Origin: an uncultured Flammeovirgaceae bacterium
GTDB taxonomy: Bacteria; Bacteroidota; Bacteroidia; Cytophagales; Cyclobacteriaceae
NCBI GenBank assembly: GCA_937884755.1
Contig: CAKZYJ010000458.1
Coordinates: forward strand, 1 to 32,507
Reading direction: 5' to 3'
Length of the DNA stretch: 32,507 nt
Below, piece after piece: positions 2,794 to 14,773 of the stretch (within the stretch, counting starts at the first letter, position 1; each line of letters opens with the position of its first letter). Made by a program: the position numbers and the translations under genes. The notes beneath the pieces are model-generated. The model was not told the origin of the DNA. It was given only the letters and a program-made list of their open reading frames with translations, and searched no databases.

Positions 2794-3660
2794 ATGGGGC
2801 TATTAATTTCAGTAATTATCCCAGTTTATAATGACCATACAGGGCTTATTACCACTTTAACCACCCTAACTAATCAGACCTTACCAGAAAGCGATTATGA
2901 AATTATTGTCGGAAATGATGGGGGATCTCCCGCTATTAGAAATATTTGTAATGATTTCGGAGTGATTTGTGTAGATATTATTCCAAACAGAGGATCATAT
3001 CATGCTCGTAATCAGGCCATGCGTAAGGTTAATAGTAAGAATTTTGCCTTTGTAGATGCTGATATTTCTGTGCCTCCAAACTGGCTTGAAAACGGATTAA
3101 ATGCCCTGCAAGAGGCAGATTATGTTGCAGGTGACGTTATCATTCAGAAAACGAAGAAAATGAGCCTCGCGGAATTGTTTGAGTATTATAGTGCTTTTAA
3201 AATTCAGGATTACCTTACAGAGCATCATTTTGGAGTAACCGGAAATTTGTTCGTAAAAGGGCGTATCTTTACTGCTGTAGGTGAATTTGATCAGCGGTTG
3301 CGTTCTAGTGGTGATTTAGAGTTCGGTGATCGGGTTTACCGCCATAGCAAGTTTGTTCAGAAATATTCCAGCGATATTACAGTGTTGCATCCTCCCAGAG
3401 GGTTTCGCAATTATAGTAGGAAGATAAAGCGAGGTGCAGTAGGCCAAGTTATGTTAAAGGAATACTATCCGGATCGTTTTCCGCATATCAATCCAGGGTA
3501 TGGCAAAGCTATAATTAGATCTATTGTACCACCAATAGCGTGGTTGAAGAAAATGATGGTCTACGAAAAAATACATATAGCGTTCTTGCTTTTTATATTC
3601 CGGTGGTACGTCAATATTATGAAGGGTTTTTATACAGTTCGTACTTTATTAAAGCGGTAA
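2794..3660 (+). CDS. Family 2 glycosyltransferase (GT-A fold)
   Basis: A 288-residue cytoplasmic or membrane-associated glycosyltransferase. It opens with ISVIIPVYNDHTGLITTL, the usual GT2 nucleotide-binding start. The nucleotide-diphosphate/metal motif DAD is at residues 88-90 (FAFVDADISVPP). Further along are GNLFVKG and SSGDLEFGDRVYR, corresponding to the acceptor-site and catalytic-base region of GT2 enzymes. The C-terminus has a hydrophobic segment (IAFLLFIFRWYVNIM) that may anchor it to the inner membrane. It should transfer one sugar from a nucleotide-sugar donor to the lipid-linked repeat unit. The specific sugar cannot be read from the sequence. It lies between the T9SS beta-helix gene and the polymerase-like gene with short gaps (15 and 18 bases). 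The gene appears full length. Confidence 0.88.
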   Translation: MGLLISVIIPVYNDHTGLITTLTTLTNQTLPESDYEIIVGNDGGSPAIRNICNDFGVICVDIIPNRGSYHARNQAMRKVNSKNFAFVDADISVPPNWLENGLNALQEADYVAGDVIIQKTKKMSLAELFEYYSAFKIQDYLTEHHFGVTGNLFVKGRIFTAVGEFDQRLRSSGDLEFGDRVYRHSKFVQKYSSDITVLHPPRGFRNYSRKIKRGAVGQVMLKEYYPDRFPHINPGYGKAIIRSIVPPIAWLKKMMVYEKIHIAFLLFIFRWYVNIMKGFYTVRTLLKR

Positions 3661-3678: not shown

Positions 3679-4881
3679 ATGATTTTGTCCAGGAAGCATA
3701 TATTTTATCTCCTGTTCTTAATTCACATTTTCGGACTGGTAATTTATTACAATAGTGACTCACTACGTAAAATAGTTTATGTAATTCCATTAGTAGTTTT
3801 TGTGCTGTGGATACTAGGGTTATCTATAAGTGGTAATTTTCGCATTCAAAAAGGCATCTATACCGAGATTTGGAAACGTTACTATAGCTACTTTTTTGGG
3901 CTATTTTACGTTCTTCTTCTACAGTCTATTCTTGCTTACGCTAATAGAGGTACCATTAACTCCAGGTTAATAAGTGAATCAATTTTCACGTTCTTCCCTT
4001 TACTTTCAGTAGCTCTGCTAGCTTATTACATGGATTACACAAAGACGCGGCAGATAGTAAGCATTCTTTTTGGAGGAATCATTATTGCATTTATTGCTGA
4101 AAAGGGAGTAGGCGGAATTCTACATTTTCATCAGGTAAACCTTGCTGAATCGTTAATTTCTTCTTCTTTTCAAAGTGAATCAGGACTGGCCTTCCTTATT
4201 GGATTATTTTCTTTCTACTTTCTATTTACAAAAAAGTGGGGACTGCTTTCTATAAGCCTGTTTTTTGTTCTAATATCAGGTAAACGGACGGTACTAGCAG
4301 CCGTTGTTTTATGCTTGGTAATATATCTTGTGTTGGCTGTATTTCGGATTGATACAAAAAGATATCGTGCTGTTTTGTCAATAGTTGCGTTATTAGCTAA
4401 TGCTTTTGTTGTCTATCTTATTTATCTTCTCGCTTCCGGCACGTTTGATCATCTCATTATTGAGAATGTTGGGTTACCACCTAATTCCTTTACCAAAGGA
4501 AGGTATAACCTGTGGAAGATTATTATCACTACCTATGATTTGAGCTACTTAGGTTCGGGGCTAGGAAGTATTAGTGATCTCTTAGTGGATCAACTTAACT
4601 ATCCATTACACAATCCACTAAATGATGTGCTAAAGATCGTGGTAGAGCATGGTTTTATCGTGTTCAGTCTCTGGTTTTTTATTTATTATTTTGTTCATAG
4701 CTACAAACGGGAAGCCTTTGTCATTACAATATATACTAACGTTTTATTCCTTTCTACTAATGTGCTTATTTATTTCTTCTTTATGTTCTGTCTATACCTC
4801 ATTCATAGTGCACTGATAACCGAAGATGTGCTTTCGCAACGAGAGGAAAAAAGAAAGAAGTTGATAAAACAACCTGCTTAG
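3679..4881 (+). CDS. O-antigen polymerase/ligase-like (Wzy/WaaL-type) integral membrane protein
   Basis: A 400-residue, very hydrophobic protein with about ten predicted membrane spans. The larger soluble loop, between roughly residues 255 and 310, includes GRYNLWKIIITTY and GSGLGSISDLL. The loop continues with HNPLNDVLKIVVEHG, which resembles the conserved H-N-x-(F/L)-L...E-x-G pattern at the end of the periplasmic loop in Wzy/WaaL-family proteins. The role would be polymerising undecaprenyl-linked repeat units, or ligating glycan, at the periplasmic face. A short basic C-terminal tail (EEKRKKLIKQ) is probably cytoplasmic. Sequence similarity in this family is weak, so the assignment rests on topology, the loop motif and the locus. 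It is the only Wzy candidate in the window; no Wzx flippase or Wza/Wzc export gene is seen here. Confidence 0.75.
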   Translation: MILSRKHIFYLLFLIHIFGLVIYYNSDSLRKIVYVIPLVVFVLWILGLSISGNFRIQKGIYTEIWKRYYSYFFGLFYVLLLQSILAYANRGTINSRLISESIFTFFPLLSVALLAYYMDYTKTRQIVSILFGGIIIAFIAEKGVGGILHFHQVNLAESLISSSFQSESGLAFLIGLFSFYFLFTKKWGLLSISLFFVLISGKRTVLAAVVLCLVIYLVLAVFRIDTKRYRAVLSIVALLANAFVVYLIYLLASGTFDHLIIENVGLPPNSFTKGRYNLWKIIITTYDLSYLGSGLGSISDLLVDQLNYPLHNPLNDVLKIVVEHGFIVFSLWFFIYYFVHSYKREAFVITIYTNVLFLSTNVLIYFFFMFCLYLIHSALITEDVLSQREEKRKKLIKQPA

Positions 4882-4902: not shown

Positions 4903-6033
4903 ATGCATATTCAAACTAGATCTTTGTTCTGGATTATTTGGTTCTCTCTAGGCTTTATCGGCTGTAGTGAAAAAGAGCCAGAAATGTTTATGAATGAATC
5001 TACTCAAATTGATCTCGATTCTATAGATGACATATACGCACCTACTAGCGTAAAACTAATTATGAAAAAAGTCTGCGATTGGCAGGTAACTCATCCGGTT
5101 GAGAGAAATGATGGTAATGGTATGGCTTGGGCTCGCTCTGCTTTTTATGCCGGAATAATGGCAACATATCAGGCTACAGGTGAAGAGAAATACCTGAATC
5201 AAGTGCTTCGATGGGGTACTGCTAAACAGTGGAAGTTAGACAATCGCTAAGACCACGCAGATGACCACGCTAGCGGACAAAGTTACCTCGAAGCATATCT
5301 CGAGCGACCAAACCCTACCATTCTTTACCACGCTCAGAAAACGTTTGACAAGCTTATTGCAGAAAACAGAGTAGGACGTGAGCTCTACTGGTGGGCTGAT
5401 GCTTTATTTATGTCTCCACCCGTAGCGGCTCGATTATATGAAACTACTAATGATGAGAAATATATTGACTTTTTGAATACAATGTGGTGGGATACTCATG
5501 ACTTCTTGTATGACCCCGAAGAACGGTTATTTTTTCAAAGTCATTGGTTCTTTCGTAAAAAAACTCCTAATGGACGTAAAACTTTCTGGGCAAGAGCCAA
5601 TGGATGGGTAATGGCTGGCACGGTACGTGTTCTGCAGTATCTACCGACCAGCAATGACTATCATGAACGATACGTAGAATTACTACAAGAGATGGCAGAG
5701 GCGGTGGCAGCTCAGCAGCAAGAAGATGGCCTTTGGCGCCCCAGTTTGCTCGATGTAGAAGAAGCACCCTTTCCGGAAACAAGTAGCTCATCTTTCTTTG
5801 TGTACGCTATTGCTTGGGGAATAAACAACGGTTATCTGCCTGAAGAAACATACCTACCTGTTGTCACTAAGGCTTGGGAAGCATTGGTAGGTGCTATTCA
5901 TCCCAACGGAAAACTGGGCTGGGTACAACCCGGTGGTAGTAAGCCTGATGAAGTAACGTACGATAACTACCAAGAATTTGGAGCAGGTTCGTTTCTATTA
6001 GCAGGCAGTGAAGTACTTAAGTTAAATAGGTGA
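4903..6033 (+). pseudogene. GH105-type unsaturated uronyl hydrolase lipoprotein, interrupted by an in-frame TAA
   Basis: Two open segments (4903-5250 and 5410-6033) lie in the same frame, and the codons between them continue the protein directly; only the TAA at 5248-5250 interrupts it. Read through, the product is 376 residues, close to the usual GH105 length. The N-terminus is a lipoprotein signal (LGFIGC, Cys21). After the stop the frame gives DHADDHASGQSYLEAYLE, the conserved active-site stretch of GH105, then WWADALFMSPPVAARLYE with the likely catalytic Asp, and later FFRKKTPNGRKTFWARANGW. GH105 enzymes remove the unsaturated uronic acid left by polysaccharide lyases. The N-terminal product alone (115 residues) would lack the catalytic region. 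The first ATG after the stop, at 5410, is not a credible start because it cuts through the active-site helix. Either a nonsense-mutated pseudogene or a read-through gene. Confidence 0.85.
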
Positions 6034-6057
6034 AAGTGATAAAATGCCTGTTAGTTT

Positions 6058-8082
6058 ATGCGAACTTATTTGATAGTAGTAATAATCTTATTGGCTTTTC
6101 AGTGCTGTAAGAGTGGCGAAAATGCTAGTTCATTAACTCCTGTTAATGGCCTCGATACGCTCTTTATTTACGTAAATAAAGAGGGGAAAAACGAATGGAC
6201 TGGTCGGCTGAACAAACCCAATAAAATGCAGACTGATGGGCCATTGGCTTCTCCACAGCGTGCTATTGAACGGATATCTGAGGTCCGGCAAGACTCAGTA
6301 AACGTTCCAGTTGTAGTGCAAATAGCACCAGGAACTTATTATCTTGACAGTACACTCGTAATTCCTGAAATTGCTTCAGGTACTAAAGATGCTGTAACTG
6401 TTATCCGTGGTGCTGAAGACCAACAGACTGCTTTAGTAGGGGGAATAGTTGTGACTACTACAAAAGCACCGACCACTTTTCTTGACCGCATTGATTCGTC
6501 TTATCTAGACAAGATAAGTGAGATCGATATAAAAGCATAAGGCATAGATGATTTGGGTTCGCTCGAGCCAAGGGGATTTCCTCGGCCTAAGTACTTAGCT
6601 CCGGTCGAGGTATTTGTCAATAGAAATCCTCTCCAGATAGCGCGTTGGCCTAATGAGGGGTGGGCTAAAATCGCTGATGTAAAAAAGGGACGCTTTGGTG
6701 ATCAGTTTAATTACTCGGGTGATCGTCCTGATCGGTGGTTAAAAGAAAAGGAAATATGGCTTCACGGGTTTTGGGCAAGAGACTGGGCTGATTCCTATGT
6801 TAGGGTAGAAAAGATTGATACCACTACCAATACTGTTAAAACTCAAAAACCGTATGGAACCTACGGCTATATAAAGGGAAAGCGCTATTACGCCCTAAAT
6901 ATTCTAGAGGAGCTAGACTCACCCGGAGAATGGTACTTTAATAAAGAGAGCGGTAAAATTCACCTATGGTTACCTGAGACAGATCAAGTTAACACTGAGC
7001 TTATACTTTCTTTATTACCAGAGCCAATTCTCCAATTGCAGAACACTTCTTTTGTTAGAATAGAGAACATGACTCTCGAGGTTACCAGAGCTACTGGTGT
7101 CCAGATTATTAGCGGTAATCACAATACCATTACAAAGGTACAAATACGAAATACCGGAAACCTAGGTCTTGAGGTGACCGAAGGTTTTAATAACGCTATT
7201 TCTGATTGCGAGATCTATAATACAGGCGAAGGAGGAATACGAATCACGGGTGGCAATAGAGACTCGCTCATCAATGCTGAACATGTGATTTACAATAACG
7301 AAATACACCATACGAACCGCTGGGTAAAGACTTATAGTCCGGGCATTCAACTCGAGGGGGTAGGAGTAGTGGTGAAGAACAATTACATCCACGATATTCC
7401 CCATATGGCGATTCGCATCATTGGCAATGAACACCTAATCGAACGTAACGAGATAGCAAGAATTGGTTCTGAGACTGGAGACTCAGGAGCTATATATTTG
7501 GGTAAAGACTGGACTATGCGGGGCAACACTATTCGCCACAATTATTTTCATGATATTAATAGTAAGTATCACCGAGGCTTGATGGGTGTTTACCTAGACG
7601 ATTTGGCCAGTGGCACTATCATCGATGGAAATATCTTTAAGAATGTTCAGCGGGCCGTGGTTGTGGGAGGCGGAAGAGATAATATTGTGAGAAACAACGT
7701 TTTTCAATCTTCTCGTTCGGCAGCAGTGCGAGTTGAATATCGTCAAGCTACGGCGGTTAATGCTGAAGATCAGCTTCGGAAGCGACTAGAGAGTGTTCCT
7801 TACCTTAGTGAGGCCTGGAAAAGAAAATATCCCGAGCTTCTTACTATTTTAAAGGATGATCCTTTGGCACCAAAGAATAATATTATTGAGAACAATACTG
7901 TAGTGGATGGCAAGTGGTTAGAGATTACTAATAAGGCAAAAGTGCTGCAAAAAATGAAGAATAATAACATTATCAATGGCACTAACCTTCGCTCGGAAAA
8001 GGATTCCAATAATTCTGCTTCGCTAGATAAATTTGAGGGACGTACTGCCATTCCTATGAGTGAAATCGGTATTCAAAAATAG
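6058..8082 (+). pseudogene. GH141-like right-handed beta-helix lipoprotein, interrupted by an in-frame TAA
   Basis: Segments 6058-6540 and 6553-8082 share one frame and are separated only by the TAA at 6538-6540; together they make 674 codons. The start encodes a lipoprotein signal with a double Cys (LLAFQCCKSG). Next come VVVQIAPGTYYLDSTLVIPE and a GGIVV segment typical of the N-terminus of GH141-like beta-helix proteins. Then follow the interrupted DIKA-stop-GIDDLG stretch, VFVNRNPLQIARWPNEGW, LHGFWARDWAD, LEELDSPGEWYFNKESG, and about ten beta-helix rungs (NTITKVQIRNTGN, NNYIHDIPHMAIRI, DNIVRNNVF). Family members usually read D-L/I-K-A-L-G at the break, so TAA probably replaced a Leu codon TTA. 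The N-terminal product alone would lack the whole helix. Known GH141 members act on fucose- or xylose-containing glycans; the activity here is unknown. Confidence 0.82.
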
Positions 8083-8115
8083 AATTGGTATTTTTTATAA
8101 CGTTTACTCGCCAAT

Positions 8116-9255
8116 ATGCACCAGAGGGTGGTCATTATTCAGAGACGCTTAACCCAGTATAGAAAACCCTTTTTTGAACTGTTGAGAAAAAGGCTTCAGA
8201 GCGAAGGGATTGACTTAAAGATTATTTATGGGAAGCCTAGCCGAACGGAGCAGTTGAAAGGAGACAATGTCACCTTAGAATGGGGAGCTCAGATTACAAA
8301 CAGAACGATTAAAGTTTTTCGTATTTCCTTACTTTGGCAGCCAGTACTTAGCTACATTGAGAAGGGAGACCTTGTTATTGTAGAACAAGCTAGTAAGTTG
8401 CTGAGTAATTACGTTCTGCTTCTCTTGTATAAGTTGGGAAGAATACGACTTGGATACTGGGGTCACGGGAAGAATCTACAAGCTCGAAAGAATCAGTGGC
8501 AAACTGAAATTGGAGAACTATAAAAAAAGCGGATTTCTAAGCAAGTGCACTGGTGGTTTGCTTATAATGACTTGAGTATGAGAATTGTTGAGAAAATAGG
8601 GTTTCCCTCAGATAGAATCAGCTCTGTACACAATACTATTAATACTGACCTCTTCTTAGCACACAACACCACAAATACAGCTATTCAGCAATATAGGCAA
8701 AAGTACCGAATACGCTCAGAAAACGTCTGCATCTTTATGGGAAGCCTATATGAAGAGAAGAGAATTCCATTTTTACTTAATGCTTGCAATAGAATTAGAG
8801 AGCTTGTTCCTGATTTTGAAATGATTATTGTTGGTGCTGGGCCTAGCGAACACTTGGTAAGGGATGTAGTTAAGAAATATGACTGGATTCACTATCTAGG
8901 ACCCAAGTTCGGAGAAGAGAAACTAGAACTATTAGCATTAGCTAAGCTATTGCTCATGCCAGGTTTGGTTGGGCTCGCAGTTATAGATGCATTTGCTTCC
9001 GAAACTCCCCTCATTACCACTAATATAGATTATCATAGCCCCGAGATTGACTATTTAGTGAACGGATATAATGGAGTTATTGTAAACAACCCAGAAGATT
9101 ATCAGCTATATGCCCACGAAGCGTCACTCCTTCTGTCAAACAATGATCAATTGAAAATACTCCAGACTGGTTGTCGAGAATCTAGAGAAAAATATACACT
9201 CAATAATATGGTTGACCGTTATTCTAATGGAATTTTATTGGCATTAAACAATTGA
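8116..9255 (+). pseudogene. GT4-type glycosyltransferase, interrupted by an in-frame TAA
   Basis: Segments 8116-8523 and 8545-9255 are in one frame, separated by the TAA at 8521-8523; together they encode 379 residues, a normal GT4 length. The N-terminal half carries the acceptor-side Rossmann fold (VVIIQRRLTQYRKPFFELLR, then VIVEQASKLLSNY and GYWGHGKNLQAR). The frame continues after the stop as KKRISKQVHWWFAYNDLSM. It goes on with the C-terminal nucleotide-sugar domain: CIFMGSLYEEKRIPFLLNA, MIIVGAGPSE, and MPGLVGLAVIDAFASETPLI in place of the E-x7-E region. A protein ending at the stop would have only the N-terminal domain and should be inactive. No convincing restart is visible: the first ATG after the stop (8579) is well inside the conserved WWFAYND segment. 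The last codons overlap the next GT4 gene by 4 bases. Confidence 0.83.
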
Positions 9256-10352
9256 TAAAAGTGTATAAAGTACTCATTGTCGGACAAACTCCTCCTCCCT
9301 ACTACGGACAGGCTATTTCCACGCAACGACTACTTGAGGGTTCCTACCAAAATCTCAAACTTTACCACGTAAGACTCTCTTTTTCTAAAGATATTAACCA
9401 AGTAGGGAAGTTTAGCCTTTATAAAATAATCCACCTGTTCTCAATTATTTTTCAAATTATCTATCACCGGCTACGATACACTATTCCAACTCTTTATTAT
9501 ATGCCGGTTGGTAACAATTATGTACCTCTTTATAGAGATATAGTAATACTATTGTGTACTCGCTGGTTGTTCAAAAGTACTGTTTTCCATTTCAGATCAG
9601 CAGGAGTAGCAAGCTTATACCTAACTTTAAGTAAGCCGTTAAAAATGCTTTACCGTAAAGCTTTCTATTATCCTGACCTTGGAATTAGACTTTCTGAAGG
9701 TACCCCTCCCGATGGGAAGTCTGTTAAAGCAAAAAAGAACATTGTGGTTCCCAATGGTTTGGAAGACTTCTATCTGAAAAACGAAGTTATTCCAATTGAA
9801 AATAAAGTTCCCATTATACTTTATGTTGGTATACTTATGGAAAGTAAGGGTATCCAAACACTATTAGAAACCGCTTTTCTACTAAAGAATGAAAATTATA
9901 AATTCAAGATGCGGTTAGTGGGTAAACCCGCATCAGAGAATTATCTAACAGGAATACAAAGATACATCAAAGACCATAATTTGGTAGAGATTGTAGAATT
10001 ACCAGGTGCTCGCTACGACGATAAAAAATGGCAGGAGTTTTTACAAACTGATATCTTTCTTTTTCCATCTCATTTCGAAACGTTTGGCTTGTCAGTACTA
10101 GAGGCCATGCAATTTAAATTACCCATTGTTGCATCAGATGTAGGTGGACTACCGGATCTGGTAATACCCAATAAAACTGGTTTCTTAGCCGAAGTAAAGA
10201 ATAGCAAGGATTTTGCTAGTAAGGTAGCTTATTTATTAGAATCACCAGCGCTACGTGAAAAGATGGGACAAGCAGGTAGAGATCGCTATTTACATTTGTT
10301 TACTGTCGAGAAATATTGGGAGAACATGGAGAATGCGCTAACGCATATTTAA
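9252..10352 (+). CDS. Family 4 glycosyltransferase (GT-B fold)
   Basis: A 366-residue GT-B glycosyltransferase. It begins VLIVGQTPPPYYGQAISTQR, the usual N-terminal glycine-loop region. In the C-terminal half are IILYVGILMESKGIQTLL, the donor-binding segment FPSHFETFGLSVLEAM (the E-x7-E motif), and PIVASDVGGLPDLV. The enzyme should add a sugar to a lipid-linked intermediate in the cytoplasm. The chosen start is TTG at 9252, which overlaps the TGA of the interrupted upstream GT4 gene (TTGA) and suggests translational coupling; GTG at 9261 is a possible alternative. The gene shows no internal interruption although the three genes upstream and the one downstream are all damaged. If ribosomes stop at the TAA of the upstream gene, coupling would be lost and its expression could drop. 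Confidence 0.87.
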   Translation: MIKVYKVLIVGQTPPPYYGQAISTQRLLEGSYQNLKLYHVRLSFSKDINQVGKFSLYKIIHLFSIIFQIIYHRLRYTIPTLYYMPVGNNYVPLYRDIVILLCTRWLFKSTVFHFRSAGVASLYLTLSKPLKMLYRKAFYYPDLGIRLSEGTPPDGKSVKAKKNIVVPNGLEDFYLKNEVIPIENKVPIILYVGILMESKGIQTLLETAFLLKNENYKFKMRLVGKPASENYLTGIQRYIKDHNLVEIVELPGARYDDKKWQEFLQTDIFLFPSHFETFGLSVLEAMQFKLPIVASDVGGLPDLVIPNKTGFLAEVKNSKDFASKVAYLLESPALREKMGQAGRDRYLHLFTVEKYWENMENALTHI

Positions 10353-10362
10353 ACGTGATTAG

Positions 10363-10779
10363 ATGACAAAAAAAGGAGTACTATATAGAATATTCGCAGA
10401 TAATCAGCGGAAAAACTCTTGGGCCAGTAAAGCTCATAATAGGCAGTTTAATTTGTTTTTGTCTCACCTTGAAAAATTACCTCGTCCGGTTTCTATACTT
10501 GATGTAGGTGAGACACACAAGTTTTCCATTGAACTACACTTCGTATTTCCTCTTTTTCATTATCTTCCTCATGAACTAAGAGTATGGCTAACTAGCCATT
10601 TTGCATTGGGTCACTACCCAAAAGCAAGTAGCTTAGCTAAGGCTAAAGATAGAATACAAGGGTTCCGGCTTCTCACTAAAAAAGAAATGAAAATACTATT
10701 TTCTGACGCAAATTTGTTTCACGAAAAAGTTTTAGTGTTGACTAAATTATTTATTGCCTACCGATTCACATCAAGTTGA
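10363..10779 (+). pseudogene. Class I SAM-dependent methyltransferase remnant with internal deletion
   Basis: A 138-residue open frame. Its first 49 residues match the start of SAM-dependent methyltransferases of sugar loci (LPRPVSILDVG, motif I beginning at the SAM-binding glycine loop). The remainder matches the C-terminal end of the same family: THKFSIELHFVFPLFHYLP, RVWLTSHFALGHYPK, IQGFRLLTKKEMKILF and HEKVLVLTKLFIAY. The rest of the glycine loop, the acidic motif II, and the D-x-V-x-S...I-E-H region normally between these parts are absent. The junction is at about 10507-10512. Roughly 80-95 codons appear to be missing without a change of frame, since family members are usually about 220-240 residues. 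The product cannot bind SAM in the normal way, so it is probably nonfunctional. The identification rests on flanking motifs recalled from the family, not on an alignment. Confidence 0.72.
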
Positions 10780-10803: not shown

Positions 10804-11577
10804 ATGTTATTATCGTTCAATAAAGTTGAACTTTTCAACACAGTAAACTACGCGGCAGTCGATTATGAATCGGCTAGTGATATTATTATTGAGCAGGCAA
10901 AACAACGAAACAGCTACGGCGTATTTGCTTTGCCGGTGCATGGTTTGGTAACCGCTATTCAAGATCGCTTAATGTGGGAGGCAACTCAGAAGGCACAAAT
11001 GATTGTACCCGACGGACAGCCTATACGCTGGGCGATGAACTACTTTCATAAAGCTGGTTTAAAGGATCGGGTGTACGGTCCAACGCTGACTTTGTATGTA
11101 CTGAGAAAAGCGAATGAGAAGGAGTTGAAGGTTTTTCTGTACGGTGGCAGTACGCAAGAAACTCTTACTAAGTTTGCTGACTTCATTCGCGAAAAGTTTC
11201 CAAATGTGATTGTTTGCGGACAGTACAGAGAGGAAGAAGCCGATGGAAATACTCTCTCCTCCGAAATAGTTAACGAGTCGGGAGCGCATATTGTCTTAGT
11301 AGGCAGAGGTTGCCCTCGCCAAGAAATCTGGATAGCTAATCGCTTAGATAGCATTAATGCTGTGATGATGGCAGTGGGTGCTGCTTTCAGCTTTCATGCA
11401 GGCACTGTTAAGCAGGCTCCCGCCTGGATGCAGCGTGCTGGCTTAGAATGGTTATTTCGTTTGATAACAGAGCCACAACGCCTCTGGAAAAGGTATCTGG
11501 AAACTAATAGTTATTTTTTATATCTCTTTTTTAAAGAAACTCTTTTTTCTAATCGCCGTGAGAAGACGATTGTTTAA
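10804..11577 (+). CDS. WecG/TagA/CpsF family glycosyltransferase (GT26)
   Basis: A 257-residue glycosyltransferase of the WecG/TagA/CpsF family, which adds a second sugar (for example N-acetylmannosaminuronic acid, ManNAc or glucosyl residues) to an undecaprenyl-linked acceptor at the inner face of the membrane. Motifs seen are FALPVHGLVTAIQD, the IVPDGQPIRWAM segment with the probable catalytic Asp70, VFLYGGSTQETLTKF, and the VGRGCPRQEIWIANRL signature. The final VGAAFSFHAGTVKQAPAWMQ, GLEWLFRLITEPQRLWKRY block is characteristic. The C-terminal helix (SYFLYLFFKETLF) is hydrophobic and probably membrane-associated. The gene overlaps the Wzi gene by 20 bases, so the two are translated as a unit. 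No internal damage is visible. The exact sugar is not readable from the sequence. Confidence 0.93.
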   Translation: MLLSFNKVELFNTVNYAAVDYESASDIIIEQAKQRNSYGVFALPVHGLVTAIQDRLMWEATQKAQMIVPDGQPIRWAMNYFHKAGLKDRVYGPTLTLYVLRKANEKELKVFLYGGSTQETLTKFADFIREKFPNVIVCGQYREEEADGNTLSSEIVNESGAHIVLVGRGCPRQEIWIANRLDSINAVMMAVGAAFSFHAGTVKQAPAWMQRAGLEWLFRLITEPQRLWKRYLETNSYFLYLFFKETLFSNRREKTIV

Positions 11578-13120
11578 TAAAAATATATTTTTCTACGCAA
11601 TTGCGTGGTTGACTGTCTTTGGCTTTAATCAACCGATTTTTGCCCAACGGTTAGATTCACTGAGAATCAATCTGGAAACTGCCGTAGCATTCTCTAACCG
11701 AGACTACCTTCCGCTGTGGATAGTATCTAATCGGTTTGGTAAGCTCGAAGACCAATCGCCAAACGGTTATTTTCTGGCAGGTATGCATTCCCCGTATGCT
11801 GGCAATAAAGACTGGGACTTTGCCTGGGGAGCAGATTATCTGGTAAACACTGAATTTTCCGAAAGTCGTATTCATCAGGGCTACGCGAAAGTAAAGTATA
11901 AGATAGTGGAACTGAGTGCCGGGTGGATGGAGCGCACAGTAGGGGTGCATCGGCCGGAGCTTTCTACCGGTTCGTTTGGCATTAGCCGAAATGCTCGGCC
12001 TTTACCATCTGTCATCTTATCTATTCCTGAATATACTCCCGTTCCCTTCACTAAAGGCTATTTAGAATTTAGAGGTCATTGGGGACATGGGTGGTTTGAA
12101 GAAGACCGACATATATCTGACGCCTGGCTTCACGAAAAGTCTTTTTATTTACAAGGAAAAGGTAAGTCGTTTCCAATGAAGGCTTACATAGGCTTGGTGC
12201 ATTTTGCTCAATGGGCAGGCACTCGCCCCAACGGACGCGAACTGGATGATAGTTTGGCTGACTACTGGCGAGTAATTACTGGCCAGTCAGGTCGTAATCC
12301 AAATGTAGGAGTAGATTTCGTTAATGCGTTAGGCAACCATCTCGGTACGATTGACTTTGGTTTTGAGTTTCCCCTGTCTAACACCACTTTAGCCTTCTAC
12401 CATCAAGAACCGTTTGAAGATAAATTGGGAATAACCCGTCATCATTTTTATGATCAGCTTTCCGGACTTTCCTGGCAAAGAGAAAAGAGTAAGTTTATTC
12501 AGGAAGTATTGTATGAATTTGTTTATACCAAACATCAGGGCGGCCCAGGAATTCCTGACCCGCCGCCGGGTACGGATTGGTCTGATCGTGCCCCAAACTA
12601 CGGCTACCGATACGGTGGGCGTGACGATTACTATAATAATTTTTTATATCAGTCGGGGTGGAATTTCTACAATCGGAGTATTGGTACCCCATTGTTTATC
12701 AACAGTCAAAGAGCTGAAAAAATGGGACTAGACGTGCCCAATTATGGGGAAGGATTCATCAGTAATCGTATTTCTACCCATCATTTGGCGGTTCTGGGGA
12801 ACTATAAAAAAACAGAGTTTAAGATTTTTGCTACCTACTCCCGCCACTTTGGCACCTATGCTGGACTAAACGGCGGGCGTTTTGAATGGGGGAGTATGGA
12901 GTCAGATTTTAACCAAAAAGAATATTTTTTTTATCAACCAAAGAGTCAATCTAGTCTGCTGTTAGAAACAACAAGACCTTTTTTGCCAAACCGGCAGTTA
13001 CAAACCTCACTATCTCTTGCCTTCGACTTTGGCAATCTGTACAGTTCATTTGGAATGCTTTTTAAAATTCGATGGAATATACATCCATTTGCTACCGGAA
13101 ATTTATCGAAAAGTGATTGA
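11558..13120 (+). CDS. Capsule assembly Wzi family outer-membrane protein
   Basis: A 520-residue protein with a signal peptide (FYAIAWLTVFGFNQPIFAQ, cleavage after about residue 29). It is then rich in alternating hydrophobic strands, as expected of a beta-barrel. Features typical of Wzi-like proteins are NRDYLPLWIVSNRFG, a GYAKVKYKIVELSAGW strand, SFGISRNARPLPSVILSIPE, and GYLEFRGHWGHGWFEEDRH. Wzi helps attach group 1-type capsule to the cell surface. The start is GTG at 11558, inside the end of the GT26 gene, with a 20-base overlap; no ATG upstream fits the signal peptide. It closes the main polysaccharide transcription unit and is followed by a 270-base gap. The presence of Wzi suggests the product is a cell-bound capsule rather than only free EPS. 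Confidence 0.9.
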   Translation: MRRRLFNKNIFFYAIAWLTVFGFNQPIFAQRLDSLRINLETAVAFSNRDYLPLWIVSNRFGKLEDQSPNGYFLAGMHSPYAGNKDWDFAWGADYLVNTEFSESRIHQGYAKVKYKIVELSAGWMERTVGVHRPELSTGSFGISRNARPLPSVILSIPEYTPVPFTKGYLEFRGHWGHGWFEEDRHISDAWLHEKSFYLQGKGKSFPMKAYIGLVHFAQWAGTRPNGRELDDSLADYWRVITGQSGRNPNVGVDFVNALGNHLGTIDFGFEFPLSNTTLAFYHQEPFEDKLGITRHHFYDQLSGLSWQREKSKFIQEVLYEFVYTKHQGGPGIPDPPPGTDWSDRAPNYGYRYGGRDDYYNNFLYQSGWNFYNRSIGTPLFINSQRAEKMGLDVPNYGEGFISNRISTHHLAVLGNYKKTEFKIFATYSRHFGTYAGLNGGRFEWGSMESDFNQKEYFFYQPKSQSSLLLETTRPFLPNRQLQTSLSLAFDFGNLYSSFGMLFKIRWNIHPFATGNLSKSD

Positions 13121-13390: not shown

Positions 13391-14773
13391 ATGCCACATA
13401 GTAGATCTAAGTACCTAAAGCTAGTATTCTCTCTTGGGGATTTTCTTATCTTGAATGGTTCATTCGTTCTAGCCTATCTACTTAAATTTAATACGCTAGA
13501 AGGACTAACTATCCCTCCGTATCTATGGCTTTGGTTAATAACTAACGGCTTCTTACTAGCGCTTACTTTTGTTTTTAAGCCATATAATATTGATCGAACC
13601 ACCAAGCTAAGTACAGTACTTAAGCGGCAATATGCTATCGTATTCCTACACCTACTGCTTATTACTGCCTTTTGGGTGTTCAATAAAGCGTACTACTATT
13701 CGCGCGTACAGCTTTTAATTACATTTGGCCTGTTTCTAGTACTGGTCTCGATCTGGCGATTAGTATTTGTTTATACCCTGGGGATCTTAAGAGCTAAGGG
13801 GTACAACCTCAGGAAAATCGTGATCGTAGGCAGCACTCGGCTTTCAAATCGATTGGTTAACCACTTAAGGGCACATCCAGAATATGGATATTACGTTCAT
13901 CATACATTTAATAGCACTCCTGAGTCACAGAATGCCGAAGAACTTCAGTACTATATCTTAAACCATGAAATTGACGAGCTTTATTGCTGTTTTCCTAACA
14001 TGGATTATGATTACCTGAAGCATTTAATTGATTTTGGACATCAGCACCGGGTTAAGGTGAAGCTGATTGGAAATATCCAGGGGCATCACTTGCCTGGAAA
14101 TCTACTAGAAGCTCCCAAACCAGAGTGGTACGGTGCTATCCCGGTAATTAACGTCACCTCAATTCCCTTAGATAATTGGTGGAATCGTTTTGTAAAACGC
14201 TTATTTGATATTGCCTTCTCACTGCTAGTTATTGGGTTCGTGTTCACTTGGTTACTTCCAGTTATTGCCATTGCCATTAAAGTAACTTCACGTGGTCCGG
14301 TATTCTTTCGGCAAAAGCGAACCGGACTTAATGGCCGAGATTTTATGTGTTGGAAATTTAGAACGATGCGTAATAACAACGATGCAGATACTAAACAAGC
14401 TACCAAACATGATCCACGAGTAACCGCGATCGGTGCTTTCTTACGGAAGACTAGTTTAGACGAACTTCCTCAGTTCTTCAATGTTCTAGTAGGTAATATG
14501 TCCGTTGTTGGTCCTCGGCCTCACCCTGTAAAGTTGAATGAGCAGTATTCTTCCCAGATTCATAAGTTCAATCACCGCCACTCAGTTAAACCAGGAATCA
14601 CCGGTTTAGCGCAAGCGAAAGGTTACAGAGGCGAGACTGCTACTTTCGATAAAATGAATAACCGAGTACGTCTGGATCGATTGTATGTGGAAAGATGGCT
14701 ATTTGCTCTAGATATTAAGATTATTTTCTTAACGCTATGGTCTCTTTTCCGCGATCAGGAAAATGCCTACTAG
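13391..14773 (+). CDS. WcaJ-type undecaprenyl-phosphate sugar-phosphate transferase (initiating enzyme)
   Basis: A 460-residue polyisoprenyl-phosphate hexose-1-phosphate transferase that starts repeat-unit synthesis by loading the first sugar phosphate on undecaprenyl phosphate. The N-terminus has four or five membrane spans (residues about 10-130). A CoA-binding-like domain follows (RKIVIVGSTRLSNRLVNHL, about residues 145-235). Then come a re-entrant hydrophobic segment (DIAFSLLVIGFVFTWLLP) and the catalytic domain with GPVFFRQKRTGLNGRDF, CWKFRTMR, SLDELPQFFNVLVGNMSVVG followed by PRPHP, and KPGITGLAQAKGYRGET. All expected family motifs are present and the length is normal. It has its own upstream gap with a promoter-like box, and its stop TAG overlaps the stop of the convergent chrA gene in the palindrome CTAG (14770-14773). 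Confidence 0.94.
   Translation: MPHSRSKYLKLVFSLGDFLILNGSFVLAYLLKFNTLEGLTIPPYLWLWLITNGFLLALTFVFKPYNIDRTTKLSTVLKRQYAIVFLHLLLITAFWVFNKAYYYSRVQLLITFGLFLVLVSIWRLVFVYTLGILRAKGYNLRKIVIVGSTRLSNRLVNHLRAHPEYGYYVHHTFNSTPESQNAEELQYYILNHEIDELYCCFPNMDYDYLKHLIDFGHQHRVKVKLIGNIQGHHLPGNLLEAPKPEWYGAIPVINVTSIPLDNWWNRFVKRLFDIAFSLLVIGFVFTWLLPVIAIAIKVTSRGPVFFRQKRTGLNGRDFMCWKFRTMRNNNDADTKQATKHDPRVTAIGAFLRKTSLDELPQFFNVLVGNMSVVGPRPHPVKLNEQYSSQIHKFNHRHSVKPGITGLAQAKGYRGETATFDKMNNRVRLDRLYVERWLFALDIKIIFLTLWSLFRDQENAY

What the first reader, a model, noticed from the sequence alone, without database searches (positions are those of the whole stretch)
4903..9255. Three consecutive genes each interrupted by one in-frame TAA
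GH105 (TAA 5248-5250), the GH141-like protein (TAA 6538-6540) and a GT4 (TAA 8521-8523) each keep one open frame over a full family length apart from a single stop, always TAA. Downstream parts of about 261, 513 and 243 codons have no further stop or frameshift. Neighbouring genes before (GT2, Wzy) and after (GT4, WecG, Wzi, WcaJ) are intact, several of them ending in ordinary TAA. Simplest reading: recent parallel inactivation of one pathway. Less likely but more exciting: context-dependent read-through or a suppressor tRNA acting on UAA in this locus. A third option is consensus error in the assembly.
Basis: partly seen in the sequence, partly recalled or inferred. Interest (0 to 1): 0.75.

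Follow-up and report, generated by a model that had tools for sequence, protein, structure and literature searches.

The report
Three broken sugar-coat genes, no recoding
Three neighbouring sugar-processing genes of a little-known bacterium each carry one premature stop signal, but the same draft genome shows such stops, of all three kinds, even in genes that a cell should hardly be able to lose, so this looks like ordinary gene damage or sequencing error and not a new way of reading the genetic code.

Summary
GH105, the GH141-like protein and a GT4 each have one in-frame TAA (5248, 6538, 8521) in otherwise open, family-length frames; no listed homologue in 97 related genomes is interrupted. 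The next gene but one (10363-10779) is a methyltransferase remnant missing about 88 internal codons, so four of five neighbouring genes are damaged.

UAA recoding is not supported. No tRNA with a UUA or CUA anticodon was found, in an incomplete set. Homologues carry unlike residues at the three sites. Elsewhere in the genome in-frame stops of all three kinds occur: TAG in prfB, rpsA, an NrfD subunit and trkH, TGA and TAA in a glmM-like gene, TGA in mutL.

A cell should hardly tolerate stops in RF2 and S1, so part of this load is probably consensus error. For this locus genuine recent decay (0.48) and consensus error (0.45) are almost level; the deletion next door is the main reason for leaning to decay. 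Read mapping at the three codons and at prfB, rpsA and glmM would decide.

The parts
4903..6033 (+). GH105/GH88-type hydrolase (PF07470) interrupted by TAA 5248-5250
5248..5250 (+). in-frame TAA; aligned residues in nine homologues K (3), T (2), R, S, Y, F
6538..6540 (+). in-frame TAA; aligned residues in six homologues Q (2), M (2), V, N
8116..9255 (+). GT4 glycosyltransferase (PF13692/PF00534) interrupted by TAA 8521-8523
8521..8523 (+). in-frame TAA; aligned in five homologues F (2), W, gap (2)
9252..10352 (+). second GT4 glycosyltransferase, uninterrupted
10363..10779 (+). methyltransferase-like remnant (class by recall) with an internal in-frame loss of about 88 codons; the five best homologues have open frames of 220-238 codons
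   Evidence: no Pfam or NCBIfam hit
2794..3660 (+). GT2 glycosyltransferase, uninterrupted
3679..4881 (+). Wzy_C-type polymerase/ligase, uninterrupted
10804..11577 (+). WecG/TagA-type glycosyltransferase, uninterrupted
11558..13120 (+). Wzi-type capsule assembly protein, uninterrupted
13391..14773 (+). WcaJ-type undecaprenyl-phosphate glucose phosphotransferase (TIGR03023, over its cut-off)

Best explanation
The three TAA codons are plain premature stops with no decoding mechanism behind them (what is shown is the absence of any sign of one). At this locus I think it slightly more likely than error that they are genuine and recent: an accessory part of an exopolysaccharide cluster (two carbohydrate-active enzymes, one GT4, one methyltransferase) is decaying, each gene having taken one lesion, three by nonsense and one by an internal deletion, while the other cluster genes (GT2, Wzy, second GT4, WecG, Wzi, WcaJ) remain open. 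That the pathway is lost, and that the lesions are recent, is inferred from the open downstream frames.
For: Four of five consecutive genes from 4903 to 10779 carry one lesion each. The fourth is an internal deletion of about 88 codons, not a substitution. By eye, family motifs beside the stops are intact in the window (HADD, P-G-F, WWFAY). Listed homologues in 97 related genomes are uninterrupted. With the stop load estimated from the genome sample (14 curated stops, 88% coding assumed, sensitivity 1.0 or 0.6 assumed), three or more stops in these 1430 codons have a local probability of 5e-5 to 2e-4.
Against: The same assembly shows in-frame stops in genes that a cell should need: prfB (TAG), rpsA (TAG) and a glmM-like gene (TGA and TAA), so its stops cannot be taken at face value. 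A chance run of three stop-bearing neighbours somewhere in this genome has probability 0.04 to 0.14 at the rates, more if the true rate is higher, and the finding was picked for being striking. Deletion-type lesions also occur elsewhere (an apparent 28-base deletion and a shift in a run of T), so the methyltransferase deletion is not decisive. No strain of the same species was at hand.
Confidence: 0.48

Rival explanations
1. Consensus error of the draft assembly. The organism has sense codons at the three sites; low-coverage or error-rich stretches of a fragmented assembly (528 contigs) introduced false stops here and in many other genes.
For: In-frame stops in the one copy found of prfB and of rpsA and in a glmM-like gene, and in an NrfD subunit whose part behind the stop is 95% identical to two congeners. 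Stops come in close pairs in the glmM-like gene (20 codons apart) and in an ECF sigma gene (two TAG 8 codons apart). Changes at positions conserved in congeners are commoner within 25 codons of a stop, 53 of 408 against 273 of 3412 further off (nine genes; counts, test, p 0.0008, bins chosen after seeing the data). The one tRNA-Thr(TGT)-like sequence found has 9 differences in 74 bases and lies at a contig start. Contigs end inside tRNA genes.
Against: The two near-versus-far tests set up beforehand were not significant (p 0.07; p 0.10). Eight tRNA genes were aligned, and by eye at least four (Lys, Gly, Met, Leu) differ at paired positions, as real evolution would. No surplus of amino-acid over silent changes in NrfD, MutL or the cellulase; there is one in TrkH, the hybrid kinase and the secreted protein, which fits either error or real decay. 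The raw scan flagged similar densities in this genome (23 in 1.02 Mb) and in the finished congener G002 (15 in 0.80 Mb), so the contrast rests on curation.
Confidence: 0.45
2. The organism reads UAA (or stops in general) as sense, through a suppressor tRNA or weakened termination, so that the three genes are made full length.
For: The parts behind the stops keep family motifs. Interrupted NrfD, MutL and cellulase show no surplus of amino-acid over silent changes. prfB itself is interrupted.
Against: No UUA or CUA anticodon among 27 tRNA genes read by ARAGORN or in the tRNA pieces at contig ends; the set is incomplete. prfA is open (354 codons). TAG is a terminator in 147 of 507 long frames here and 132 of 383 in G002, and a second stop follows TAG within three codons in 32 of 146 here and 21 of 132 in G002: no clear avoidance. 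Unlike residues at the sites. Three kinds of stop would need more than one suppressor.
Confidence: 0.04
3. Split genes: ribosomes restart just behind the stop and two polypeptides together do the work.
For: ATG follows the TAG directly in rpsA and after two codons in prfB. In the window a TTG and a GTG lie 4 and 7 codons behind two of the stops.
Against: The GH105 has no ATG, GTG or TTG in frame for 53 codons behind its stop.
Confidence: 0.03

Closest known systems
Ordinary bacterial pseudogenes (nonsense and deletion lesions)
   Same: Single lesions in non-core genes, no decoding element found, open relatives.
   Different: Here the same assembly also shows stops in housekeeping genes, which real pseudogenes should not include.
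In-frame stop codons in prokaryotic genes under purifying selection (Belinky et al. 2021, PMC7918605; outline, abstract and passages seen)
   Same: Isolated in-frame stops in otherwise constrained genes.
   Different: That study focused on stops present in orthologues of two or more species to avoid artefacts; the stops here were seen in this genome and not in the relatives compared.
Stop codon reassignment as in the screen of PMC8629427 (passages seen; its tool name, Codetta, is recalled)
   Same: Stops at positions where homologues have amino acids.
   Different: No consistent residue, no suppressor tRNA found, three different stops, all still used as terminators.

Membership tests
Pseudogene cluster | Frame interrupted relative to open homologues | tested here: met
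Pseudogene cluster | Lesion present in the organism, not only in the assembly | not testable with these tools
   no reads and no second strain at hand
Pseudogene cluster | Relaxed selection on the parts behind the stops | not tested
   best homologues only 39-46% identical, too far for it
Consensus error | Lesions fall on genes regardless of need | tested here: met
   prfB, rpsA and a glmM-like gene interrupted; small numbers, 15 of 16 E. coli-derived probes found no interruption
Consensus error | Local bursts of changes around stops | tested here: inconclusive
UAA suppression or reassignment | tRNA with a UUA (or CUA) anticodon | tested here: not met
   set incomplete, 150 of 385 first-look candidates scored
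UAA suppression or reassignment | One consistent residue at the stop in homologues | tested here: not met
UAA suppression or reassignment | Stop avoided as terminator or backed by tandem stops | tested here: not met
   TAG share slightly lower than in G002, p 0.08
UAA suppression or reassignment | Full-length product | not testable with these tools
   needs proteomics or ribosome profiling

The most novel reading that the evidence does not exclude
If reads confirm the stops, this is a bacterium that tolerates nonsense codons of all three kinds in constrained genes, among them RF2, ribosomal protein S1, a GlmM-like enzyme and an NrfD-family subunit, through weak termination (RF2 itself being interrupted) and restarting at nearby ATG codons. 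The three TAA genes would then be made at low level.
Probability: 0.04. Interest if true: 0.85.

Novelty: already known. Interest (0 to 1): 0.2.

Why it matters
As it stands the finding is a caution: a run of single stops in neighbouring genes of a draft genome is no evidence for recoding until housekeeping genes of the same assembly have been looked at. Here some of them carry stops too. If reads were to confirm those stops, tolerance of nonsense codons in a bacterium would become directly testable.

Tried and rejected
Ochre or amber suppressor: tRNA survey by Rfam (29 matches), ARAGORN on those 29 loci (a gene in 27, no UUA or CUA), ARAGORN on the same loci and the genome sample (27 distinct tRNAs), and a DNA search for seven tRNA types present in congeners but missing here. 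Those lie at contig ends, four of them (Leu-CAA, Arg-TCT, Val-GAC, His) in two overlapping pieces, with normal anticodons in the pieces seen.

Amber excess: TAG 9 of 15 in my curated list outside the window, against 0.40 expected, p 0.19; TAA 2 of 15 against 0.38, p 0.06; the window's three of three TAA against 2 of 15, Fisher p 0.01. The list was made before the glmM-like gene was found and leaves its two stops (TGA, TAA) out. It contains a PIN-domain gene and a GH gene judged by eye only. Other sites flagged were dropped by eye as ordinary gene starts or doubtful.

G-to-T signature: not enriched near stops, 2 of 12 against 19 of 131. Relaxed selection: amino-acid to silent singletons of this genome 228/339 in interrupted and 97/208 in neighbouring open genes; congeners together 296/662 and 122/379; raised to a like degree in both, so not telling. 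A first single-codon coding score was too weak to use.

Raw tblastn counts of alignments holding a stop were 5 of 101 in this genome and 11 of 115 in congener G002. By eye I took only two in this genome (hybrid kinase, ECF sigma) and none in G002 as real internal interruptions, the rest as extensions past gene ends or shadow frames. Frameshift pairs were 4 here (one at about 33% identity, one among very short open pieces) and 1 in G002, the counterpart of one of them. In one search rows for S4 (all three genomes) and for L3 and L6 (G003) show a TAA, which I took for alignment past the gene end without checking; one weak match each in G002 and G003 shows a TGA, not followed up. In one search the match of the small coiled protein in G003 (48%) holds a TAG and a TAA, not followed up. 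Of the 11 loci of other genomes fetched, five (L386-L390) aligned as methyltransferases; the other six gave no usable frame.
Full report
Setting. The window is the whole of contig C458 (32,507 bases) of a draft genome of 8.35 Mb in 528 contigs, 97.8% complete and 3.7% contaminated. By the C-terminal part of RF2 the nearest named record is an uncultured Flammeovirgaceae MAG (96% over 217 aa; records of this genome itself may be left out there), so this is a member of the Bacteroidota, by its relatives an environmental one. The locus is an exopolysaccharide cluster: GT2, Wzy, GH105, GH141-like beta-helix protein, GT4, GT4, methyltransferase remnant, WecG, Wzi, WcaJ.

The observation. Each of the three genes is one frame broken by one TAA, at 5248, 6538 and 8521. 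GH105 matches PF07470 across the stop; the beta-helix and GT4 domains lie behind it. Searches of 98 genomes, this one and 97 relatives, list no other interrupted homologue (the list was cut). This genome also holds two paralogues of the GH141-like protein on contig C528, 39-42% identical and without internal stops.

A fourth lesion. The 138-codon frame at 10363-10779 has no Pfam or NCBIfam hit. In a search of 148 genomes of the family 33 have a match, this one included. The five best homologues have open frames of 220-238 codons, and in three of these genomes (G153, G052, G131) the two ends of the query match on either side of a gap of about 250 bases. An alignment with the five shows that the middle is missing here, about 88 codons, up to and including their PNY motif. 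Four of five neighbouring genes are thus damaged.

Is UAA read as sense? Rfam found 29 tRNA matches; 150 of 385 first-look candidates were scored. ARAGORN found a gene in 27 of the 29 loci and no anticodon was UUA or CUA. Seven types present in congeners and missing from that list (His, Ser-TGA, Leu-CAA, Thr-TGT, Arg-TCT, Val-GAC, Asn) turned up at contig ends, with normal anticodons in the pieces seen. Release factor 1 is open. Homologues show unlike residues at the three sites. TAG, TAA and TGA are all used as terminators, as in G002, and second stops close behind are not clearly commoner. Nothing supports recoding.

What the rest of the genome shows. Looking for release factor 2, I found prfB (C113) with its normal programmed frameshift site (recognised by recall) and a further in-frame TAG; 80 of 80 relatives have a sense codon there. 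I then read 983,742 bases of the genome besides the window, about 12%, two small contigs of it withheld as N. Interrupted genes with orthologues in congeners: mutL (TGA; 3 of 3 congeners open), an NrfD-family subunit (TAG; 2 of 2 found open), trkH (TAG; 3 of 3), a hybrid kinase (TAG; 3 of 3), a secreted protein (TGA; 3 of 3), a GH5 cellulase (TAG; 2 of 2) and a small coiled protein (TAA; 2 open, while the weaker match in the third holds stops) (names, the secreted and small proteins by eye). An ECF sigma gene has two TAG 8 codons apart. Two well conserved genes appear frameshifted, one by an apparent 28-base deletion and one in a run of T.

Housekeeping genes. Sixteen E. coli K-12 proteins were used as probes in two joined queries, five and eleven. 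In this genome 15 of 16 gave no interruption. The GlmM probe hit a phosphohexomutase (366 of 439 bits needed for TIGR03990 from the part before its first stop) with TGA and TAA 20 codons apart, where G002 and G003 are open at 90% identity. The S4 row shows a TAA in all three genomes, which I take for the normal terminator. Ribosomal protein S1 was met by the way: TAG in rpsA, lysine in G002 and G003 at 91-92% identity, the two parts matching positions 6-362 and 364-578 of one S1 model. A second phosphohexomutase is open on C452, so loss of the glmM-like gene may be less absolute than loss of RF2. A search with recalled motifs found open frames for RpoB, RpoC, EF-Tu, DnaA, RecA, ArgS, AspS, AtpA and Ffh or FtsY in the sample.

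Reading this. RF2, S1 and GlmM are not genes that a cell should readily lose (recalled). If stops fall on such genes as on others, part of the load must be error, or stops are tolerated. Pairs of stops a few codons apart, and a tRNA-Thr with nine differences in 74 bases at a contig start, look like bad stretches of consensus. Yet the tests set up for this were not significant (p 0.07, 0.10); only a wider bin chosen afterwards was (53 of 408 against 273 of 3412). Amino-acid changes are in surplus in trkH, the hybrid kinase and the secreted protein, but not in NrfD, mutL or the cellulase. The ab initio scan flagged similar raw densities here and in finished G002 (23 in 1.02 Mb, 15 in 0.80 Mb), and raw tblastn counts were even higher in G002 (5 of 101 against 11 of 115). 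The contrast with G002 therefore rests on curation and on the housekeeping genes.

Back to the window. With the estimated stop load, three or more stops in 1430 codons have a local probability of 5e-5 to 2e-4, but a run of three stop-bearing neighbours somewhere in the genome has 0.04 to 0.14 (with assumed gene lengths and sensitivity), and the finding was chosen for being striking. The methyltransferase deletion beside them tips me slightly towards genuine decay of an accessory module. I give decay 0.48 and consensus error 0.45; these odds are judgement, not computed. Either way the finding is ordinary.

Literature. In-frame stops in constrained prokaryotic genes have been described as widespread and not always pseudogenes (PMC7918605, outline, abstract and passages). 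The screen of PMC8629427 tells of wrong stop inferences from contamination and from alignment to in-frame stops (passages). I made two paper searches and claim no absence from print.

Noticed in passing
L098:1252-1254 (own genome C113:41060-41062): In-frame TAG in prfB (RF2) besides the normal frameshift site; ATG after two further codons; 80 of 80 relatives have a sense codon.
   Followed up: partly
L236:9494-9496 (C367): In-frame TAG in rpsA (ribosomal protein S1), directly followed by ATG; two congeners have lysine.
   Followed up: partly
L382:1692-1694 and 1752-1754 (C46): TGA and TAA 20 codons apart in a glmM-like gene that is open in two congeners at 90% identity.
   Followed up: partly
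L221:1185-1187 (C477): In-frame TGA in mutL, with several changes at conserved positions beside it; if real, it may make a mismatch-repair mutator.
   Followed up: partly
L224:1699-1725 (C125): ECF sigma factor gene with two TAG 8 codons apart.
   Followed up: partly
L368:31-104 (C44): The only tRNA-Thr(TGT)-like sequence found has 9 differences to the congener, some spoiling its anticodon stem; it lies at a contig start.
   Followed up: no
L362 and L371, L363 and L365, L364 and L370, L366 and L369: Contigs of this assembly end inside tRNA genes (Leu-CAA, Arg-TCT, Val-GAC, His); the two pieces of each overlap by 29 to 55 bases.
   Followed up: no
L191:18121-18136 and L189:6871-6904: A PolB-like exonuclease gene with an apparent 28-base deletion and a PorV-like gene shifted in a run of T (names by recall).
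   Followed up: partly
window 10363-10779: Methyltransferase remnant with an internal loss of about 88 codons.
   Followed up: yes
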